DNA of 64,000 nt from contig NZ_CANKUD010000007.1 in NCBI RefSeq assembly GCF_947486615.1, positions 177,769 through 241,768 of the forward strand. The letters are read 5' to 3'. Positions 9,079-45,102 of the stretch are shown here, one piece after another. This DNA is from an uncultured Modestobacter sp. Lineage in GTDB: Bacteria > Actinomycetota > Actinomycetes > Mycobacteriales > Geodermatophilaceae. The translations under genes and the position numbers were made by a program. The notes below the pieces were generated by a model. That model searched no databases. It saw only the letters and a program-made list of their open reading frames with translations, and was not told the DNA's origin. Position 1 is the first letter of the stretch, and each line of letters starts with the position of its first letter.

Positions 9079-9987
9079 GTGCTCGAGTTCGACGGCCTGG
9101 TCAAGGCCTACGGCGACAACCAGGTGCTGAAGGGGGTGAGCTTCTCCGTCGCGCCGGGGCAGATGTTCGGCTTCTGCGGTTCCAACGGCGCGGGGAAGAC
9201 CACCACCATGCGGATCGCGATGGGCCTGGCCCGGGCCGACGCGGGGGAGGTGCGCTGGTCGGGCCGGCCGGTCGACGAGGCCGTCCGCCGCCGGATCGGC
9301 TACATGCCCGAGGAGCGGGGGCTGTACCCGAAGATGAAGGTCGGCGAGCAGCTGACCTACTTCGCCCGGCTGCACGGCATGGACGCCGCACCCGCGGCCC
9401 GCGCCGCCGAGGCGTGGGCCGAGCGCCTCGGGCTGGGGGAGCGGCAGGGCGACAAGGTGGAGAAGCTGTCGCTGGGCAACCAGCAGCGCGTGCAGCTGGC
9501 CGCCGCGCTGGTCAGCGAGCCCGAGGTGCTGATCCTGGACGAGCCGTTCTCCGGCCTCGACCCGGTGGGCGTCGACTCCCTCGCCGAGGCGCTGCTCGAG
9601 CAGGCCCGTCGCGGCGTCCCCGTCGTCTTCTCCAGCCACCAACTGGACCTGGTGGAGCGGCTCTGCGACGCCGTGGGCATCCTGGCCCGCGGCTCGATCG
9701 TGGCCAGCGGCACCGTCCCCGAGCTGCGGTCCACGACCGCGGGCCGGCAGCTGCGAGTGGTCGCCCCCGACGCGCCGGCCGGCTGGGCCGGCGCCGTGCC
9801 GGGCGTCCGGGTCGTCTCCGAGCAGCGCGGGGACACCGTGCTCGAGCTCGCGCCCGGCACCGACGACCAGCAGGTGCTCGCCGCGGCCCTGGCCACCGGC
9901 CGGGTCACCCACTTCGCCTGGCGCGAGCCCACCCTCGTCGAGCTCTTCCGCGACGCCGTCACGACGCCTGAGGAGGTGGCGGCGTGA
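9079..9987 (+). CDS. ABC transporter ATPase, NatA-like
   Basis: A 302-residue nucleotide-binding subunit: Walker A GSNGAGKTTT (residues about 34-43), Q-loop region MPEERGLYPKMK, signature LSLGNQQRV (in place of LSGGQ), Walker B LILDEPFSGLDPVG, and switch His in FSSHQLD. The final 80 residues form the extra domain common in NatA/DUF4162-type exporters. The GTG start has GGAGGGG 4 bases away. It overlaps the permease gene by 4 bases (GTGA), so the two are co-translated. The role is probably export (drug, lipid or ion); the substrate is unknown. Confidence 0.92.
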   Translation: MLEFDGLVKAYGDNQVLKGVSFSVAPGQMFGFCGSNGAGKTTTMRIAMGLARADAGEVRWSGRPVDEAVRRRIGYMPEERGLYPKMKVGEQLTYFARLHGMDAAPAARAAEAWAERLGLGERQGDKVEKLSLGNQQRVQLAAALVSEPEVLILDEPFSGLDPVGVDSLAEALLEQARRGVPVVFSSHQLDLVERLCDAVGILARGSIVASGTVPELRSTTAGRQLRVVAPDAPAGWAGAVPGVRVVSEQRGDTVLELAPGTDDQQVLAAALATGRVTHFAWREPTLVELFRDAVTTPEEVAA

Positions 9988-11213
9988 CCGCGACCGCACA
10001 CCGCGACGCACAGACCCTTGCACCGGCGCACCCCGACGTGACGCCGCACAGCCCGGCGCAGCTGGTCCGCCTGGTGGCCGGCCGGGAGGTCGGCACCCGG
10101 ATCCGCGACAAGGGGTTCCTCGCCGGTTCCGCGTTCCTGATCCTGCTGATCGTGGGCATGCTGGTCTTCCAGGTGCTCATCAACAGCGGGGAGGACACCA
10201 CCCGGCTCGGGGTGGTCGGTGGGGACACCACCGTCAGCGATGCGCTGCGCAGCCAGGGTGAGGCGCTGGGCACCGAGGTGGAGGTCGTCGAGTTCGACGA
10301 CGAGGGCGCGGCCCGCACCGCCGTCGAGGACGGCGACGTGGAGGGCGCGCTGCTCAGCCCGTCCGGCGTCCAGCCCGAGCTGCTCGTGGAGAGCGACGGC
10401 GGGCAGGTCGAGACCCTCGTGCAGGGCGCGGTGCAGGGGCTGTCGCTGAGCCAGCAGCTGGCCGATGCCGACGTCACGCTGCAGGAGCCGCCGGAGGTCG
10501 AGGTGGTGGCGCTGGACCCGGACGCCGACGCCGACTTCGAGGCGATCATCGTCGCGCTCATGGGCGTCGCCGTGCTGTACGGCCTGTTGCTGCTGTTCGG
10601 CCAGTTCGTCGCCCAGGGCGTGGTCGAGGAGAAGTCGAGCCGGGTCGTGGAGCTGCTGCTGGCCACCATGCGCCCGTGGCAGCTGCTCGCCGGCAAGATC
10701 ATCGGCCTGGGCGTGCTGGCGCTGGGGCAGATGCTGGTGATCGCCGTCATCGGGGTGGCGGGGGCGCTGGCCTTCGACCTGGTCGCACTGCCCGGCGACC
10801 TGATCGGCACGGTGCTCACCGTGCTGGCCTGGTTCGTGCTCGGCTACGCCTTCTACGCGTCGCTGTTCGCTGCCGCCGCGTCCCTGGTCAGCCGGCAGGA
10901 GGACCTGGGCAGCGTGATCACCCCGGCGACCCTGCTGCCCGTCGTCGGGATCGTCATCGCCATCCAGGCCGCGCAGGACCCGACCGGCACGCTGGCCGTC
11001 ATCACGTCCTACGTCCCCGGGATCTCACCGATGGTCATGCCGTTGCGTCAGGCGGCCGGTGCCGCCGCGTGGTGGGAGGTCGCCCTCGCCGTCGTCCTCA
11101 TGCTGGTCGCGATCGCCGCCATCGTGCGGATCGGCGGGCGGGTCTACGCCGGGGCGCTGCTGCGCACCGGCGGCCGGGTCAAGCTGCGCGAGGCCCTGGC
11201 CTCCGAGAAGTAG
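9984..11213 (+). CDS. ABC-2 type permease, NatB-like
   Basis: A 409-residue membrane partner of the upstream ATPase. One helix near residues 45-67 is followed by an extracytoplasmic domain of about 120 residues rich in acidic residues, then five or six helices (from FEAIIVALMGVAVLYGLLLL onward) with the ABC-2 coupling segment VVEEKSSRVVELLLATMRPWQLLAGKIIG between them. The arrangement matches NatB-type sodium or drug exporters. The stop is directly followed by a degenerate copy of the dispersed repeat and a strong hairpin. Confidence 0.9.
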   Translation: MTATAHRDAQTLAPAHPDVTPHSPAQLVRLVAGREVGTRIRDKGFLAGSAFLILLIVGMLVFQVLINSGEDTTRLGVVGGDTTVSDALRSQGEALGTEVEVVEFDDEGAARTAVEDGDVEGALLSPSGVQPELLVESDGGQVETLVQGAVQGLSLSQQLADADVTLQEPPEVEVVALDPDADADFEAIIVALMGVAVLYGLLLLFGQFVAQGVVEEKSSRVVELLLATMRPWQLLAGKIIGLGVLALGQMLVIAVIGVAGALAFDLVALPGDLIGTVLTVLAWFVLGYAFYASLFAAAASLVSRQEDLGSVITPATLLPVVGIVIAIQAAQDPTGTLAVITSYVPGISPMVMPLRQAAGAAAWWEVALAVVLMLVAIAAIVRIGGRVYAGALLRTGGRVKLREALASEK

Positions 11214-11262
11214 GAGGACCCCCACGCTTCACGAGCTCGGCGCGGGCCCCTGAAGGGCGGCC
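11211..11262 (+). repeat. Dispersed intergenic repeat, degenerate copy D
   Basis: Begins at the natB-like stop codon (TAGGAGGACCCC) and keeps the core ACGAGCTCGGCGCGGGCCCC followed by a diverged end TGAAGGGCGGCC. Closest to copies B and C, but the outer inverted arms are degraded. Confidence 0.6.
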
Positions 11263-11281
11263 GTACCAGCACGATCGGCCT

Positions 11282-11313
11282 CGGCGCTCTCCGCCTACTG
11301 GCGGAGGGCGCCG
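11282..11313. terminator. Hairpin terminator at the convergent permease/SMP-30 junction
   Basis: The arms CGGCGCTCTCCGCC (11282-11295) and GGCGGAGGGCGCCG (11300-11313) pair over 14 bases with one G-T wobble around a TACT tetraloop. It overlaps the last codons of the SMP-30 gene, whose stop is at 11295-11297. No T-run. Confidence 0.6.
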
Positions 11314-12206
11314 AGCGGGCCGCGGTAGGGGTGCGCGGGGGAGCCGGTCACCCCGGTGCGCACGGTGAACAGCCGGCCGGCATCGGGCTGGGCGGCGGCC
11401 TGCTCCTCGCTCAGCCCGTGCACCGAGGTGCTGATCACCAGCAGGTCGCCGACGAGCGCGCAGCTGGTGGTGTTCTCCACACCCGGGACGTCGACCACCG
11501 CGAGCAGCTCGCCGCTGGGCGACCAGCGGCGGACCTGGCCGCCGCCCCACAGCGCCGTCCAGAGGCAGCCCTCGTCGTCCACGGTGAGGCCGTCGGCGAC
11601 GCCGTCCGGGTCGTCGGAGAAGTCCAGCAGCACCCGCCGCTCACCGAAGGTGCCGGCGTACAGGTCGTAGTCGAAGGCCCAGACCGTCTTCGCGCCGGAG
11701 TCGGACAGGTACACGGTGCGGTCGTCGGGCGAGAAGCCCAGGCCGTTGGAGATGGTCAGCCCGTCGAGCACCGTGCTGACCGTGCCGTCGAGGTCGAGCC
11801 GGTAGAGACTCCCGGCGCCGGGGCGCTCGTCGAAGGCCATGGTGCCGCCGAAGAAGCGGCCGGCCCGGTCGCACCCGCCGTCGTTCATCCGGGTGCCGCC
11901 CGCCTCGCCGCCCTCGCCGGTGAGCTGGATCAGCGCGTGCGCCTCGCCCTCGGCGGTCAGCCGGGTCACGCCGGCGTCCGCGCCCAGCAACCACCCGCCG
12001 GCGGCGGCCGGGACGGCGAACCCGACCGTCTCCCCGCCGCGGTGCTCGCCCACGTCGACCACGTCGTCGCCCTCCACCCGGCCGCGGCGCACCAGCCCGG
12101 CGGTGATGTCCACCCAGACCAGCTCGCTGGCGGCGGCGTCCCAGATCGGGCCCTCACCGTGCTCGGCGGCGGAGGCGCTGGCGGGCTGTGCCTGCAGTCG
12201 GATCAC
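11295..12206 (-). CDS. SMP-30/gluconolactonase family protein
   Basis: A 303-residue six-bladed beta-propeller hydrolase of the regucalcin/gluconolactonase type, which opens sugar lactones using one divalent metal. Visible family motifs: GEGPIWD with the metal-binding Glu, [19 protein letters not shown] (Asn and Asp ligands), [20 protein letters not shown] and [24 protein letters not shown]. The frame runs open to 12866, but the part beyond 12206 is the shadow of ppc; the GTG at 12206 is preceded by GAGGAT plus 6 bases, readable either as a GGAGG-type ribosome site or as a leaderless -10. Divergent from ppc with 55 bases between. Confidence 0.88.
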
Positions 12207-40165: not shown

Positions 40166-41686
40166 TCAGCGGCCGAGGTGGCGCCAGCGGCGGGTGCGGG
40201 CGCGCATCCGCTCGACGTCGTCCCGGCCGAGCAGCCCGGCGAGCTCCTGGGCGAGCACCCGGCCCAGCCGCTGGCAGAACTCCACCGGCTCGTCGGCGGC
40301 GTCGGGCCGTTCGGGCACCACCCGGTCGACGATGCCGTCCCGCCACAGGTCGGTGGCCCGCACGCCCTGGCTGGCGGCCAGCTCGTCGGCCCGGTCGACG
40401 GTGCGGTGCACGATCGCCGAGGCGCCCTCCGGGGGCAGCGGGCCCAGCCAGCCGTTGGCCGCGGCCAGCACCCGGTCGGCGGGCACCAGGGCCAGCGCGC
40501 CGCCTCCGGTGCCCTGCCCGAGCAGCACGGCCAGCGTCGGCGCCTGCAGCATCACCAGGTCCTGCAGGCAGCGGGCGATCTCCCCGGCCAGCCCGCCCTC
40601 CTCGGCGGCCACCGACAGCGCGGCACCCGGGGTGTCGATCAGGGTGAGCAGCGGCAGCCGCAGCTCCGCGGCCAGCCGCATCCCGCGCCGGGCCTCGCGC
40701 AGTGCGCCGGGGCCGAGCGGCGCCGACAGCGACTGCCCGCGCCGGTCCTGCCCCAGCACCACGCAGGGCGCGCCGCCGAACCGGGCCAGCGCGATCAGCA
40801 GCCCGGGGTCGGACTCGCCGGCGCCGGTGCCGTTGAGCGTGACGACGTCGGTGGCCGCGGTGCGCAGCAGCTGCCGCACCCCCGGCCGGTCCGGACGGCG
40901 CGAGGCGGTGACGACGTCCCAGGCGGTGCGGCCGTCCTCCGGGTCGTCGGCGTCGGTGCCGTCACCGGCGACCGGACCCTCGACCTCGGCCTGCCGGTGC
41001 CAGGTGGAGCGGGCGGCCAGCACCCGCAGCGCCCGGTCGGCGACGTCGGCGATCTCCTCGTGCGGGACGACGCCGTCGATCAGCCCGTGCGCGGCCAGGT
41101 TCTCCGCGGTCTGCACCCCCTCGGGGAACGGCTCCCCGTACAGCGCTTCGTAGACCCGCGGGCCGAGGAAGCCGACCGCGGCGCCGGGCTCGGCGATGGT
41201 CACGTGCCCCAGCGAGCCCCAGGAGGCGAGCACGCCGCCGAACGTCGGCCCGCGCAGGTAGACCAGGTAGGGCAGCCCCGCCTCCTTGTGCCGGGCGATC
41301 GCCGCGGTGATGCCGATCATCTGCAGGAAGGCGACCGTGCCCTCCTGCATCCGGGTGCCGCCGGAGACCGGTGCGGCCAGCAGCGGCAGGCCCTCGTCGG
41401 TGGCCCGCTCGACCGCGGCCATCAGCCGTTCGGCGGTGGCCACCCCGATCGACCCGGCCAGGAAGCTGAACTCCCCGGCGACGACGGCCACCCGGCGCCC
41501 GCGCAGCCGGCCCTCGCCGGTGACGACCGCCTCGTCCTGCGAGCTCTTCTCCGTCGCCCGGGCGAGCTCGGCGGCGTAGTCGTCGTCCACCGCGCGGGGC
41601 GGCACCGGGGTGTCCCAGGAGGTCCAGGACCCCGGGTCGAGCACCAGGTCGCGCAGCGAGCGGGCGTCCAGCCGGCGGGCGCTCAC
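40166..41686 (-). CDS. Fused AccD-AccA-like carboxyltransferase
   Basis: 506 residues with two crotonase-fold halves. N-half (about 60-240): FSFLAGSIGVATAERLMAAVERA, APVSGGTRMQEGTVAFLQM and GGVLASWGSLGHVTIAEPGAAVGFLGPRV, as in AccD/MdcD but without the zinc finger of AccD. C-half (about 290-490): CVVLGQDRRGQ, LLTLIDTPGAALSVAAEEGGLAGEIA and LLGQGTGGGALAL, as in AccA/MdcE. No biotin carboxylase or carrier gene is near. In context it may decarboxylate or transfer the carboxyl group of a malonyl-type thioester. GTG start overlaps the CoA-transferase stop by 4 bases. Confidence 0.88.
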   Translation of the reverse strand: MSARRLDARSLRDLVLDPGSWTSWDTPVPPRAVDDDYAAELARATEKSSQDEAVVTGEGRLRGRRVAVVAGEFSFLAGSIGVATAERLMAAVERATDEGLPLLAAPVSGGTRMQEGTVAFLQMIGITAAIARHKEAGLPYLVYLRGPTFGGVLASWGSLGHVTIAEPGAAVGFLGPRVYEALYGEPFPEGVQTAENLAAHGLIDGVVPHEEIADVADRALRVLAARSTWHRQAEVEGPVAGDGTDADDPEDGRTAWDVVTASRRPDRPGVRQLLRTAATDVVTLNGTGAGESDPGLLIALARFGGAPCVVLGQDRRGQSLSAPLGPGALREARRGMRLAAELRLPLLTLIDTPGAALSVAAEEGGLAGEIARCLQDLVMLQAPTLAVLLGQGTGGGALALVPADRVLAAANGWLGPLPPEGASAIVHRTVDRADELAASQGVRATDLWRDGIVDRVVPERPDAADEPVEFCQRLGRVLAQELAGLLGRDDVERMRARTRRWRHLGR

Positions 41687-42921
41687 GTCGCGTGCCCGTC
41701 CTCGACGTCGCCGCCCTCGCCCTCGGGCTGCGGTACGCCGTCGGCCCCGGACAGCCAGGCGCGGATCGCCGCACCGTCGGCCCCGAGCACCGGCGGCGGG
41801 GTGTGGTCGCGGCGGGTGGTCTCCACCTCGCCGTCCGAGCCGGGGGCGAAGAAGCGCAGCGGGGGACCGGGCAGCGTCAGTGGCCCGGCGGTCGGGTGGT
41901 CGACCGAGATCGCCAGCCCCTGGGACAGGGTCTGCTCCCAGGCGTACACCTCGTCGAGGGTGCGGACCTTGCCCGCCGGGACGCCGGCCGCCGCCAGCCG
42001 GGCCAGCAGCTCCTCGGCGGGGATGTCGGCGAACGCGGTCTCCAGCAGCTCGATCACCTGCTGCCGGTTGCCCACCCGCTCGCCGTTGGTGGCCAGGCCG
42101 GGCGCCTCGGGGTCGAAGCCGAACTCGGTGCACAGCCGGCGCCACAGCCCCTCGCTGCCGCAGGACAGCTGCACGCTGCCGCCCCCGGCGCAGCGGAACA
42201 GGCCGTAGGGCGCGATCGAGGGGTGGTGGTTGCCCTGCCCGCGGTTGACCTTGCCGCCCACGGTGTAGGCCGTGCCCTGGAAGGCGTGCACGCCGACGAC
42301 GGCGGCCAGCAGCGAGGTGCGCACCACCTGGCCGCGGCCGGTCTGCTCCCGCTCCAGCAGCGCCGCGAGCACGCCGTAGGCGCCGTACATGCCGGCCAGC
42401 AGGTCACCGATCGGGACGCCGACCTTCTGCGGGTCGTCCGGACCCGAACCGGTCAGCGACATCAGCCCGGCCTCGCCCTGGGCGATCTGGTCGTAGCCGG
42501 CCCGCTGCCCCTCCGGGCCGTCGTGGCCGAACCCGCTGATCGACAGCTGCACCAGCCGCGGGTTCAGCTCGGCCAGCACGTCGGTGCCGAAGCCGAGCCG
42601 GGCCAGCGTGCCGGGGCGGAAGTTCTCCATCAGCACGTCGGCGCGGCGCACCAGCTCGGTCAGCAGCGCCTTGTCGCCGTCGTCCTTGAGGTCGAGGGTG
42701 ATCGACTCCTTGTTCCGGTTCGCGGAGAAGAAGTAGGTGGACTCCCGGCCCTCGGGGGTGTCGACGAACGGTGGCCCCCAGCCGCGGCTGTCGTCGCCGC
42801 TGCCGGGGCTCTCCACCTTGATCACCCGGGCGCCGAGGTCGCCCAGCATCATCCCGGCGTGCGGCCCGGCGAGTGCGCGGGTCAGGTCGACGACGAGCAC
42901 GCCGTCCAGGGGTCCGGTCAT
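41683..42921 (-). CDS. CaiB/BaiF-family (type III) CoA-transferase
   Basis: 412 residues: GVLVVDLTRALAGPHAGMMLGDLGARVIKVESPGSGDDSRGWGPPF, YFFSANRNKESITLDLK, ENFRPGTLARLGFG and IGDLLAGMYGAYGVLAALL, whose Asp173 is the expected acyl-anhydride nucleophile. Moves CoA between an acyl-CoA and a carboxylic acid; here probably activates the acid imported by the neighbouring permease. ATG start with GAGGAA and AGGAACC close upstream. Coupled to the carboxyltransferase downstream and 13 bases after the permease stop. Confidence 0.92.
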   Translation of the reverse strand: MTGPLDGVLVVDLTRALAGPHAGMMLGDLGARVIKVESPGSGDDSRGWGPPFVDTPEGRESTYFFSANRNKESITLDLKDDGDKALLTELVRRADVLMENFRPGTLARLGFGTDVLAELNPRLVQLSISGFGHDGPEGQRAGYDQIAQGEAGLMSLTGSGPDDPQKVGVPIGDLLAGMYGAYGVLAALLEREQTGRGQVVRTSLLAAVVGVHAFQGTAYTVGGKVNRGQGNHHPSIAPYGLFRCAGGGSVQLSCGSEGLWRRLCTEFGFDPEAPGLATNGERVGNRQQVIELLETAFADIPAEELLARLAAAGVPAGKVRTLDEVYAWEQTLSQGLAISVDHPTAGPLTLPGPPLRFFAPGSDGEVETTRRDHTPPPVLGADGAAIRAWLSGADGVPQPEGEGGDVEDGHAT

Positions 42922-42934
42922 GGTTCCTCTTCCT

Positions 42935-44269
42935 CTACATCCAGCCGGGCACGACGAACACCAGCCAGGCCACCAGCGGCCCGACAGCGACGACGATCCC
43001 GGAGTAACCGAGCATCTGCTTGTAGAACCGGTCGCGGTCGATGTCCTGGGCGTTGGCCAGCACGAGCGCGCCGTTGGTGGAGAACGGGCTGACGTCGACG
43101 ATCGTCGAGGCCACGGCGAGGGCGGCGACCACACCGACCGCGCCGATCTCGCCGGCCATCAGGAACGGGACGGCGAGGGAGATCGCCACGCCGATGATCG
43201 CCGTCGAGGAGGCGAACGCCGACACCACGGCGCCGATGTAGGCCAGCAGCAGGGCGACCAGCAGCGGGCTGCCCAGGCCGGTGACGCCCTCGCCGACGTA
43301 GCTGATCGTGCCGGCCTCCTGGAGCACGAAGACGAACGTCAGCACCCCGGCGATCAGCAGCACCGTGGACCAGCTGATCTGCATGACCGCACCCTTGTGC
43401 CGGGCCGCGGAGAACAGCGCCAGCACGGTGGCGATGGTGATCGAGACGAAGCCGATGTCCAGGTCGAACGCCAGGGCCAGCACGGCGAGGGTGGCCAGCC
43501 CGACCAGGGTGAGGACCTGCTCGGCGGTCACCCCGGTCGCCGGCTCGCTGCTGCCACCGGTGTCGGTCGACGCGGCGGCGCCGTGCCCGCGCACCACGCT
43601 GCTGCGGTCGCCGCTGCCGACCAGCTCCCGCTCCTCGGCCTCGATCTCGTCGCCCACCCGGCGGCCGAGCAGCTGGCGCCCGCCGAAGACCAGGAAGAGC
43701 ACGACGGCGATGGCCAGGTTGAAGAGGAGGCTGGCCAGGAAGATCGTCAGCGGGCTGCCGGGCAGGCCGTTGTCGTCGACGATCCCGTTCACGGTGACGC
43801 CGTAGACGCTGATCGGGGAGAACCCGCCGCCCTGGGCGCCGTGCACGACCATCATGCCCATCAGCAGCGGGTTGATCCGGTGCTTGGCGGCGAAGCCCAG
43901 GGCGATCGGCGCGATGATCGCCACCGCGGCGGGGGAGAGCGCGCCGATCGCGGTCAGTGCGGCCGTGACGGCGAACATCACCCACGGGATGAACGCCACC
44001 CGGCCGGCGACCAGCCGCACGGCGCCGCGCACCAGCAGGTCGACGGTGCCGTTGTTCTGCGCGATGGCGAACAGGTAGGTGACGCCGATCAGCGTCAGCA
44101 CCAGCCCACCGGGGAAGCCGGCGATGATGTCGTCGGTGGACAGCCCCACCGCCAGGGTGCCGACCAGGAACGCGGCGACGAAGGCCAGCGCGCCCATGTT
44201 GATCGGCAACGCGGTGGCGACGGCGAAGATCGCCACCAGCGCGATGATCGAGATGACCTCGGGTGACAC
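42935..44269 (-). CDS. MatC/SLC13-like dicarboxylate permease
   Basis: 444 residues, about 11-12 helices. The N-terminus ISIIALVAIFAVATALPINMGALAFVAAFLVG matches what I know of the MatC N-terminal domain (malonate carrier) and the later SAFASSTAIIGVAISLAVPF and STIVDVSPFSTNGALVLANA the SLC13/ArsB fold. A hydrophilic loop (about 215-270) is acidic and Ser/Thr rich. Probable substrate: malonate or another short dicarboxylate. GTG 44269 has AGGAG 8 bases before. First gene of the operon, divergent from the FadR-type regulator gene. Confidence 0.88.
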   Translation of the reverse strand: MSPEVISIIALVAIFAVATALPINMGALAFVAAFLVGTLAVGLSTDDIIAGFPGGLVLTLIGVTYLFAIAQNNGTVDLLVRGAVRLVAGRVAFIPWVMFAVTAALTAIGALSPAAVAIIAPIALGFAAKHRINPLLMGMMVVHGAQGGGFSPISVYGVTVNGIVDDNGLPGSPLTIFLASLLFNLAIAVVLFLVFGGRQLLGRRVGDEIEAEERELVGSGDRSSVVRGHGAAASTDTGGSSEPATGVTAEQVLTLVGLATLAVLALAFDLDIGFVSITIATVLALFSAARHKGAVMQISWSTVLLIAGVLTFVFVLQEAGTISYVGEGVTGLGSPLLVALLLAYIGAVVSAFASSTAIIGVAISLAVPFLMAGEIGAVGVVAALAVASTIVDVSPFSTNGALVLANAQDIDRDRFYKQMLGYSGIVVAVGPLVAWLVFVVPGWM

Positions 44270-44330
44270 GTCTGTGCTCCTGCTTCTCGGGTTGAGGTCG
44301 CGGCCAGCTGCCAGTGACCCGGAGCACTGT

Positions 44331-44365
44331 CTCAGTGGCTGAGCCTCTGCGCCAGTCGGTACTGT
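44331..44365 (+). promoter_or_regulatory. Candidate operator and -10 between permease and regulator genes
   Basis: CTCAG-TGG-CTGAG (44331-44343) is a perfect dyad; CCAGTG (44311) and CACTG (44325) form a second, looser pair just before. TACTGT (44360-44365) is a good -10 for the regulator, with the dyad at its -35. A GntR/FadR dimer could silence both divergent genes from here. Confidence 0.35.
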
Positions 44366-44394
44366 GTGCCCGGTCACGCGGGCGAGGAGGTGCG

Positions 44395-45102
44395 GTGAGC
44401 AGGACTGCTGGGCCGGCACCGCTGCGCCGCAACCGGCTCTACGAGCAGGTCGTGCAGCAACTGGTGACGTGGGCCGCCGAGGCAGGGCTGGGCCCCGGTG
44501 ACCGGTTGCCACCCGAGCGTGACCTGGCCGCCCGGCTGGGGGTCAGCCGGGCGACCGTCGCCCAGGCGCTGGTCGCCCTCGAGGTCACCGGAGTTGTGTC
44601 GGTCCGGCACGGCGACGGGACGGTGCTGCTGCAGGCACCCCGCACCGATGCGGTGCTGGCCGCGCTGCGCACCCGCCGCGACGACCTGGGCGACGTGATC
44701 GAGGCGCGCGCCGCGCTGGAGGTGCGGCTGGCGGCGCTGGCCGCGCGGCGGCGCACCGACGCCGACCTCGCCGAGATCGACGCCGCGTTGCAGGCGATGG
44801 CCGACGACGTCGCCACCGGTGGCCGCGGGCTCGACGGCGACGAGCGCTTCCACGCCGCGGTCACCGCCGCCGGGCACTCCCCGCTGCTCTCCCGGTTGAT
44901 GGCCGAGATCGGCGACCTGGTGCGGGAGAGCCGGATCGAGTCGCTCGCCCAGGCGGGCCGGCCGCAGCGGTCGCTGGCGGGCCACCAGCAGATCGCCGAC
45001 GCCGTCCGGGCCGGTGACCCGCGGGCGGCCGCGGCGGCGATGACCGCGCACATCGAGCTGGTGTCCGACGTCCCGCTGCTCGGCGGCGGGGCCTCAGGCT
45101 GA
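44395..45102 (+). CDS. FadR-subfamily GntR transcriptional regulator
   Basis: 235 residues. N-terminal winged helix: NRLYEQVVQQLVTWAAEAGLGPGDRLPPERDLAARLGVSRATVAQALVALEVTGVVSVRHGDGTVL. C-terminal FCD-type all-helical ligand domain: DVIEARAALEVRLAALAARRR, DERFHAAVTAAGHSPLLSRLMAEI and HQQIADAVRAGDPRAAAAAMTAHI, with the Asp/His/His metal pattern. It is divergent from the permease operon, like MatR beside matABC, and so probably senses the imported acid or its CoA ester. GTG start with GAGGAGG. The last 9 bases overlap the end of the cyclo-ligase gene on the other strand. Confidence 0.92.
   Translation: MSRTAGPAPLRRNRLYEQVVQQLVTWAAEAGLGPGDRLPPERDLAARLGVSRATVAQALVALEVTGVVSVRHGDGTVLLQAPRTDAVLAALRTRRDDLGDVIEARAALEVRLAALAARRRTDADLAEIDAALQAMADDVATGGRGLDGDERFHAAVTAAGHSPLLSRLMAEIGDLVRESRIESLAQAGRPQRSLAGHQQIADAVRAGDPRAAAAAMTAHIELVSDVPLLGGGASG

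What the first reader, a model, noticed from the sequence alone, without database searches (positions are those of the whole stretch)
40166..45102. Possible undescribed malonate/dicarboxylate catabolic unit: MatC-like permease, type III CoA-transferase, fused AccD-AccA-like carboxyltransferase, divergent FadR-type regulator
Seen: three genes on the minus strand, the last two overlapping by 4 bases and the first two 13 bases apart, face a GntR/FadR gene across 125 bases with a perfect CTCAG-TGG-CTGAG dyad. Known: in rhizobial matRABC, MatR (GntR) controls MatC (carrier), MatB (malonyl-CoA synthetase) and MatA (malonyl-CoA decarboxylase). Inference: here MatB would be replaced by a CoA-transferase and MatA by a zinc-free fused carboxyltransferase resembling MdcD-MdcE, giving import, CoA loading and decarboxylation by unrelated enzymes. 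No biotin protein is near, which favours decarboxylation over classic carboxylation.
Basis: partly seen in the sequence, partly recalled or inferred. Interest (0 to 1): 0.75.

Follow-up and report, generated by a model that had tools for sequence, protein, structure and literature searches.

The report
Likely biotin-free malonate breakdown operon
A four-gene unit in an actinobacterium probably imports malonate, attaches it to coenzyme A and splits off carbon dioxide with an unusual relative of fatty-acid carboxylases; in several relatives the same enzyme pair sits with genes that break down uracil-type bases, and it suggests a job for a mycobacterial protein of unknown function.

Summary
In detail: genes, spacing, overlap and dyad are as described. 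The unit is a MatC/CitMHS permease, a class III CoA-transferase, a fused AccD-AccA-like carboxyltransferase (CT) without zinc ribbon, and a divergent GntR/FCD regulator, in a Modestobacter-type genome. The transferase directly precedes CT in 70 of 80 named relatives; permease and regulator vary (39 and 12 of 80). No biotin carboxylase or carrier gene was found in 116 stretches of this clade; two biotin-linked AccDA loci used as controls have both. By descent CT lies with AccA/AccD, not MdcD/E. New: the pair and its kin cluster with barbiturase, oxamate-carbamoyltransferase-like, amidase and Mo-hydroxylase genes, a route ending in malonate, and the window's own genome has a barbiturase. A conserved operator-like site precedes the unit in several families. 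Best reading: malonate CoA-transferase plus biotin-free malonyl-CoA decarboxylase, a CoA-based counterpart of Mdc and of oxalate Frc/Oxc. Mycobacterial AccD3-type proteins fall inside this clade. Activity is untested. A new variant of a known kind.

The parts
40166..41686 (-). Fused AccD-AccA-like carboxyltransferase without zinc ribbon (506 aa, GTG start); proposed biotin-free malonyl-CoA decarboxylase; same clade as mycobacterial AccD3-type proteins
   Evidence: (Carboxyl_trans, ACCA; NCBIfam hits shown are below cut-off), tree, motifs, AlphaFold model pLDDT 79.8
41683..42921 (-). Class III (CaiB/BaiF-type) CoA-transferase, 412 aa; proposed malonate CoA-transferase; catalytic Asp173
   Evidence: Asp aligned with residue 169 of E. 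coli Frc in 84 of 84 rows, the window's included; that residue 169 is catalytic is recalled
42935..44269 (-). MatC_N/CitMHS permease, 444 aa; proposed malonate or dicarboxylate importer
44333..44349 (.).
44395..45102 (+). GntR/FCD (FadR-type) regulator, 235 aa, divergent

Best explanation
The unit degrades malonate. The MatC-type permease brings malonate in. The class III CoA-transferase moves CoA from acetyl-CoA or succinyl-CoA onto malonate. The fused AccDA-like protein then decarboxylates malonyl-CoA to acetyl-CoA and CO2 without biotin. If acetyl-CoA is the donor, CoA cycles and the net reaction is malonate to acetate plus CO2, the logic of oxalate Frc/Oxc and, with free CoA instead of an acyl carrier protein, of Mdc. 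Malonate also arises inside the cell: barbiturase opens barbiturate from uracil, and ureidomalonate is split to malonate. Methylmalonate from thymine is a possible second substrate. The regulator binds the conserved dyad and responds to malonate or a related acid. Shown: gene content, conservation, phylogeny, a barbiturase-type gene in the own genome. Inferred: every reaction step, the substrate, the CoA donor, the effector.
For: Transferase directly upstream of CT in 70 of 80 named loci and 11 of 36 phylum loci. An 11-base operator core, TGGCTAGGCCA, has 9 exact hits in 8 of 214 loci (2.67 Mb), each 36-97 bases before a permease or transferase gene of this unit. CT adjoins AA_kinase and AtzD/barbiturase-family genes in L091, L106 and L137. 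Amidase-HyuA-HyuB-transferase-CT beside a Mo-hydroxylase gene in L151; the same blocks in L152 and L154. Seven of 15 phylum genomes with both a CT match (E<=1e-60) and PF09663 have them 19-60 kb apart on one contig. The own genome has a PF09663 protein with the barbiturase signature N-H-K-V-A beside a kinase, with AllF/AllG-like genes about 7 kb off. No BC/BCCP gene found in 116 clade stretches; both found in 2 of 2 biotin-linked AccDA controls. Other transporter neighbours are of acid-carrier families: TctA/TctC, GntP. Malonyl-CoA decarboxylase PF05292 is in 4 of 396 phylum genomes, not in the own one. MdcD-MdcE, a CT-like biotin-free pair, decarboxylates malonyl-CoA in vitro (PMC5534430, passages). 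AccD3 bound no partner used in a mycobacterial carboxylase study (PMC4347857, passages).
Against: By descent CT is closest to biotin-dependent AccDA and keeps its N-domain oxyanion motifs, so carboxylation with a distant biotin partner is not excluded; the own genome has nine Biotin_lipoyl hits. Lack of a zinc ribbon is no proof of biotin independence: L158, with BC and BCCP beside it, also shows none in its called protein, whose start may be cut. 9 of 80 named and 23 of 36 phylum loci have no transferase found in the fetched stretch. Eight mycobacterial genomes in which I saw only the AccD3-type gene have no transferase over 45% identity. In Brevibacterium the pair sits in a histidine operon without a permease. 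The own barbiturase is on another contig. G004 has CT but no PF09663 hit. Co-occurrence statistics (p=4e-5) are not corrected for phylogeny. CT lacks the MdcE Gln/Tyr/Ser thought to touch the malonyl group.
Confidence: 0.62

Rival explanations
1. [quoted passage not shown] the CoA-transferase supplies its acyl-CoA.
For: CT groups with AccA/AccD; nearest solved folds are AccA/AccD and PccB-type; N-domain motifs are intact; biotin or lipoyl carriers exist in the genome; L158 shows that a biotin-linked AccDA can lack a detected zinc ribbon.
Against: No biotin gene found in 116 clade stretches against 2 of 2 biotin-linked AccDA controls; the second P-G of AccA's PGAYPG is lost in 41 of 41 clade rows but kept in E. 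coli AccA and both controls; AccD3 bound no partner used (PMC4347857, passages) and is not needed for fatty or mycolic acid synthesis in M. smegmatis (PMC5311964, passages).
Confidence: 0.17
2. Same chemistry on another substrate: methylmalonate (from thymine through 5-methylbarbiturate, recalled), or another dicarboxylate taken up by the MatC-type carrier.
For: The transferase's best NCBIfam hit is the succinate-glutarate CoA-transferase family, below cut-off; GntP, TctA and MatC families carry varied acids (general knowledge).
Against: Barbiturase context points to malonate as the main product; glutaryl-CoA or succinyl-CoA are not beta-dicarboxylic esters that a CT-type site would be expected to decarboxylate (general knowledge).
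Confidence: 0.15
3. The adjacency is incidental: CT and transferase are separate house enzymes of unrelated function that became neighbours.
For: CT stands without a transferase found nearby in many loci, and in G024 a 62% transferase lies far from CT; the pair sits in a his operon in Brevibacterium.
Against: The pair is kept in families as distant as Geodermatophilaceae, Brevibacteriaceae, Streptosporangiaceae and unnamed families at 45-52% CT identity, with a 4-base overlap in the window, and both genes appear together in different contexts.
Confidence: 0.06

Closest known systems
Mdc malonate decarboxylase (MdcA, MdcC, MdcD-MdcE)
   Same: CT-like decarboxylase without biotin plus a thioester exchange enzyme; MdcD-MdcE accepts malonyl-CoA in vitro (PMC5534430, passages)
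   Different: No acyl carrier protein or MdcA among the four genes; CT is a separate clade nearer AccDA; it lacks the MdcE Gln100/Tyr102/Ser142 equivalents (read by eye)
Rhizobial MatRABC (features recalled and from the finding)
   Same: MatC-type carrier and GntR regulator; malonyl-CoA as intermediate
   Different: CoA-transferase instead of MatB ligase; CT-like protein instead of MatA; no PF05292 in the genome
Oxalate Frc/Oxc and YfdE of E. coli
   Same: Class III CoA-transferase beside an acyl-CoA decarboxylase gene; Asp shared; CoA can cycle
   Different: Transferase 33% identical to Frc and 37% to YfdE; the decarboxylase there is thiamine-dependent (recalled)
Mycobacterial AccD3 (Rv0904c, MSMEG_5642)
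   Same: AccD3-type rows (CT divergent from a 244-aa enoyl-CoA hydratase and a 372-aa metallo-beta-lactamase-fold protein, the recalled accD3-echA6-Rv0906 order) lie inside the window's clade
   Different: No CoA-transferase or permease found beside it; that these rows are AccD3 rests on recalled gene order, not on the H37Rv sequence
Biotin-linked fused AccDA acetyl-CoA carboxylase (L156, same genus)
   Same: Fused beta-alpha CT, 39-40% identical
   Different: Has a zinc ribbon and adjoining BCCP and BC genes, GAHPG motif

Membership tests
Biotin-dependent AccDA acetyl-CoA carboxylase | Common ancestry of the CT with AccA/AccD | tested here: met
   Tree; Pfam/NCBIfam
Biotin-dependent AccDA acetyl-CoA carboxylase | Zinc ribbon in the beta part | tested here: not met
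   No PF17848 in P0001 nor in 26 of 26 members of A1 (most of these start at residue 1-7 of the match); present in L156 but not found in biotin-linked L158, so a weak criterion
Biotin-dependent AccDA acetyl-CoA carboxylase | Biotin carboxylase and carrier partners | tested here: inconclusive
   None found in 116 of 116 neighbourhoods, but Biotin_lipoyl proteins exist elsewhere in the genome
Biotin-dependent AccDA acetyl-CoA carboxylase | AccA motifs PGAYPG and GEGGSGGALA | tested here: not met
   PGAALS and GQGTGGGALA in the window; the second P-G absent in 41 of 41 clade rows
Mdc malonate decarboxylase | Common ancestry with MdcD/MdcE | tested here: not met
   MDC rows form their own clade 100/99, apart from the window clade, with long branches; malonate_beta 51.5 bits against cut-off 278
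Mdc malonate decarboxylase | MdcA and MdcC acyl carrier genes in the unit | tested here: not met
   Not among the four genes; no malonate_beta hit over cut-off in the own genome; MdcA and MdcC were not sought genome-wide
MatABC malonate pathway | Malonyl-CoA decarboxylase MatA (PF05292) | tested here: not met
   0 in own genome; the search rang in 4 of 396 phylum genomes
MatABC malonate pathway | MatC-type carrier and GntR regulator | tested here: met
   PF07158 1.2e-58; PF00392+PF07729
Class III CoA-transferase | CoA_transf_3 domain and the Asp | tested here: met
   9.2e-115; Asp in 84 of 84 rows
Class III CoA-transferase | CoA transfer to malonate | not testable with these tools
   Needs an enzyme assay
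Barbiturase (own-genome partner, L186:9525-10628) | Bar signature Asn/His/Lys/Val/Ser-or-Ala (PMC3758960) | tested here: met
   N194 H324 K328 V348 A349; best PDB hit 5hwe 'Barbiturase', 634 bits

The most novel reading that the evidence does not exclude
This clade of fused CTs, AccD3-type proteins of mycobacteria included, is a biotin-free malonyl-CoA decarboxylase unrelated to MCD and only distantly to MdcDE. With its CoA-transferase it forms an additional route of malonate breakdown, and in several actinobacterial lineages it is the last step of an uncharted uracil-to-acetate pathway: Mo-hydroxylase, barbiturase, an AllF/AllG-like ureidomalonate transcarbamylase with carbamate kinase that saves ATP, amidase, transferase, CT.
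Probability: 0.38. Interest if true: 0.8.

Novelty: new variant of a known kind. Interest (0 to 1): 0.62.

Why it matters
It would add a compact, CoA-based route to the known Mdc, Mad and MatABC ways of using malonate. It would give the oxidative pyrimidine pathway, reported to yield malonate and urea, a plausible genetic end. It offers a testable function for AccD3, which two mycobacterial studies left unexplained (PMC4347857, PMC5311964; passages seen). A carboxyltransferase fold working as a stand-alone decarboxylase a second time, apart from MdcDE, would also inform how such enzymes lose biotin.

Tried and rejected
Kinship with MdcD-MdcE: rejected by the tree and motifs, though PccB-like and MDC rows have long branches and their exact place is unsure. 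Zinc ribbon as the mark of biotin dependence: given up after L158. Sigma-70 and terminator scans: 0 promoters, 0 terminators, uninformative here. The first MCD search of the own genome rang in no control, so it was repeated over the phylum. Ten literature searches (CC0, CC BY and CC BY-SA papers only) showed no prior description in their listings; that is not absence from print. Seffernick 2012 was not held. CT making malonyl-CoA for export was considered and set aside. In the VIA-align listing MdcDE did not appear among the 50 entries shown; that excludes nothing. The first naive gene caller failed at high GC and was replaced; gene borders in relatives are approximate. In one search at most 3 candidates were scored in the genomes listed, so second copies may be missed. 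The first signature read-out was off by one at the His and was redone. Mo-hydroxylase genes in the own genome were not searched.
Full report
What is there. Pfam names them Carboxyl_trans/ACCA, CoA_transf_3, MatC_N/CitMHS and GntR/FCD. The genome is of Modestobacter type: same-genus G005 contig 20 and a named Modestobacter sp. VKM Ac-2984 contig share the length 265335 and the place of CT. CT is common in the genus: full length in 17 of 22 same-genus genomes, fragments in 3, none of this kind in 2 incomplete ones.

What is conserved. In these the CoA-transferase lies directly upstream on the same strand in 70, downstream in 1, and was not found in the stretch in 9; MatC is in 39 (one, L094, a 63-residue match), the divergent regulator in 12, the four together in 12. 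In an even draw of the phylum 64 of 396 genomes have a CT match at E<=1e-60. I fetched the places at 45% identity or more outside the own genome, 31, plus 5 (36 loci, L119-L154): transferase directly upstream in 11, near but not adjacent in 2, not found in 23; MatC 2; regulator 2. The core is thus transferase plus CT. Transporter neighbours change: MatC, TctA/TctC in L147, GntP in L119, or none. Of 21 genus genomes, 6 have a close MatC (81% or more); the others have only homologues of about 39-54%.

Regulator site. In ten divergent gaps (window and nine Geodermatophilaceae loci) GGC and CCACTG are invariant within a dyad of majority form CAGTGGC-TAG-GCCACTG. Its core TGGCTAGGCCA has 9 exact hits in 8 of 214 loci (2.67 Mb), each 36-97 bases before a permease or transferase gene of this unit, including two in L128 (one before each gene), one in L096 and one in L097, outside Geodermatophilaceae. 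The loci were fetched around CT, so the sample is enriched for such places. The window itself has a variant (GGC-TCA-GCCACTG). L092 and L099 have neither.

The barbiturate link. In L106 (Pseudonocardia bannensis) and L091 (Kineosporiaceae MAG) the pair is followed by an AA_kinase and an AtzD/barbiturase-family gene; L106 also has AllG-type, CoA-ligase (AllF/FdrA-type) and PucR genes. L137 (G034) has CT, kinase and AtzD family in line, with the transferase upstream and two genes between. L151 has MoCoBD, amidase, HyuA, HyuB, transferase and CT; L152 and L154 have the same blocks, L144 the same without MoCoBD in the stretch. These are a minority: most of the 116 clade stretches show none of the pyrimidine-type genes sought. 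Of 396 phylum genomes 27 have PF09663; 15 of these also have a CT match at E<=1e-60, and in 7 of the 15 both are on one contig 19-60 kb apart (G344, G155, G062, G047, G262, G112, G088; five of these CTs are of the 38-42% kind, of which two, L155 and L157, were in the tree). For the stricter group (31 genomes at 45% or more), 9 have a PF09663 gene not of the cyanuric type, against 17 PF09663 genomes among the 365 others, one-sided Fisher p=4e-5, without correction for phylogeny; the signature of one of the nine (G406) was not examined.

Are these barbiturases? Peat et al. (PMC3758960, passages) give signatures for barbiturase (Asn, His, Lys, Val, Ser/Ala) and cyanuric acid hydrolase (Arg, Thr, Arg, Gly, Gly). 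Of 22 proteins from the fetched loci, 12 have the full barbiturase signature, 9 have N-H-K-V followed by Gly, which departs from it at the last residue, and one (L205, G087) has R-T-R-G-G. The own-genome protein (L186:9525-10628) has N-H-K-V-A and matches PDB 'Barbiturase' 5hwe at 634 bits. 20 of 21 genus genomes have a PF09663 gene. I fetched 19 of the 27 PF09663 genomes; in 12 of the 18 with N-H-K-V both AllF- and AllG-like genes lie in the fetched stretches (my count from its listing).

Mechanism. PMC3758960 states that pyrimidines oxidised to barbituric acid are hydrolysed by barbiturase and ureidomalonase to malonic acid and urea. AllFGH is the oxamate transcarbamylase of E. coli (PMC11326118, passages), acting on oxalurate, the shorter analogue of ureidomalonate. 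So a phosphorolytic split of ureidomalonate to carbamoyl phosphate and malonamate, then kinase and amidase, is my inference for the clusters with AllF/G. Malonate then needs activation and decarboxylation, which transferase and CT would supply. The transferase keeps the class III Asp in 84 of 84 rows. If the product acetyl-CoA serves as CoA donor, the couple works like Frc/Oxc on oxalate.

AccD3. The rows called mycobacterial (for example L122) show CT divergent from a 244-aa enoyl-CoA hydratase and a 372-aa metallo-beta-lactamase-fold protein, the recalled order of accD3, echA6 and Rv0906. PMC4347857 reports that AccD3 interacted with no partner used and doubts that it is a carboxylase subunit (passages). 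PMC5311964 finds AccD3 dispensable for fatty and mycolic acid synthesis in M. smegmatis, states that its function awaits study, and mentions a second AccD3-like gene, MSMEG_2169 (passages); I did not examine that gene. One unnamed Mycobacteriaceae genome, G111, has the four-gene operon, an AccD3-type gene and a fused MdcDE. Eight mycobacterial genomes in which one search listed only one CT have no transferase over 45% identity, so its role there may differ.

Verdict. Malonate catabolism by an unusual enzyme pair is the best reading; the chemistry is untested. It is a new variant of a known kind, with a link to pyrimidine catabolism and to AccD3 that I did not find in the listings of the ten literature searches.

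Noticed in passing
L186:3-2857 and 9525-11590 (own genome, contig 12); L106, L188-L192, L194, L197, L198, L200, L203, L204: AllF/AllG-like (oxamate carbamoyltransferase) genes, and in most of these loci an AA_kinase, accompany barbiturase, suggesting a phosphorolytic, ATP-saving split of ureidomalonate in place of ureidomalonase.
   Followed up: partly
L101, L102, L104, L105, L107-L110 (Brevibacterium); L138: The transferase-CT pair sits between hisG and hisA homologues in Brevibacterium (Pfam run on L109 only), and next to homologues of the hisE- and hisG-like genes in L138, an unrelated-looking setting without a permease.
   Followed up: partly
L212:1369-3093 (unnamed Mycobacteriaceae genome G111): A fused MdcD-MdcE protein (574 aa) in a genome that also holds the four-gene operon and an AccD3-type gene.
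   Followed up: no
G017:C1:1058-2267 (same genus): A second, broken MatC-like stretch with in-frame stops besides the intact one.
   Followed up: no
L155, L157: A more distant CT kind (about 41%) beside GntR, CoxE-like and nucleoside-phosphorylase genes (L155 also a CoA-transferase and HyuA/HyuB), 28-59 kb from a barbiturase-family gene.
   Followed up: partly
L158:8883-10472: A biotin-linked fused AccDA in which no zinc ribbon was found; its called start may be cut.
   Followed up: partly
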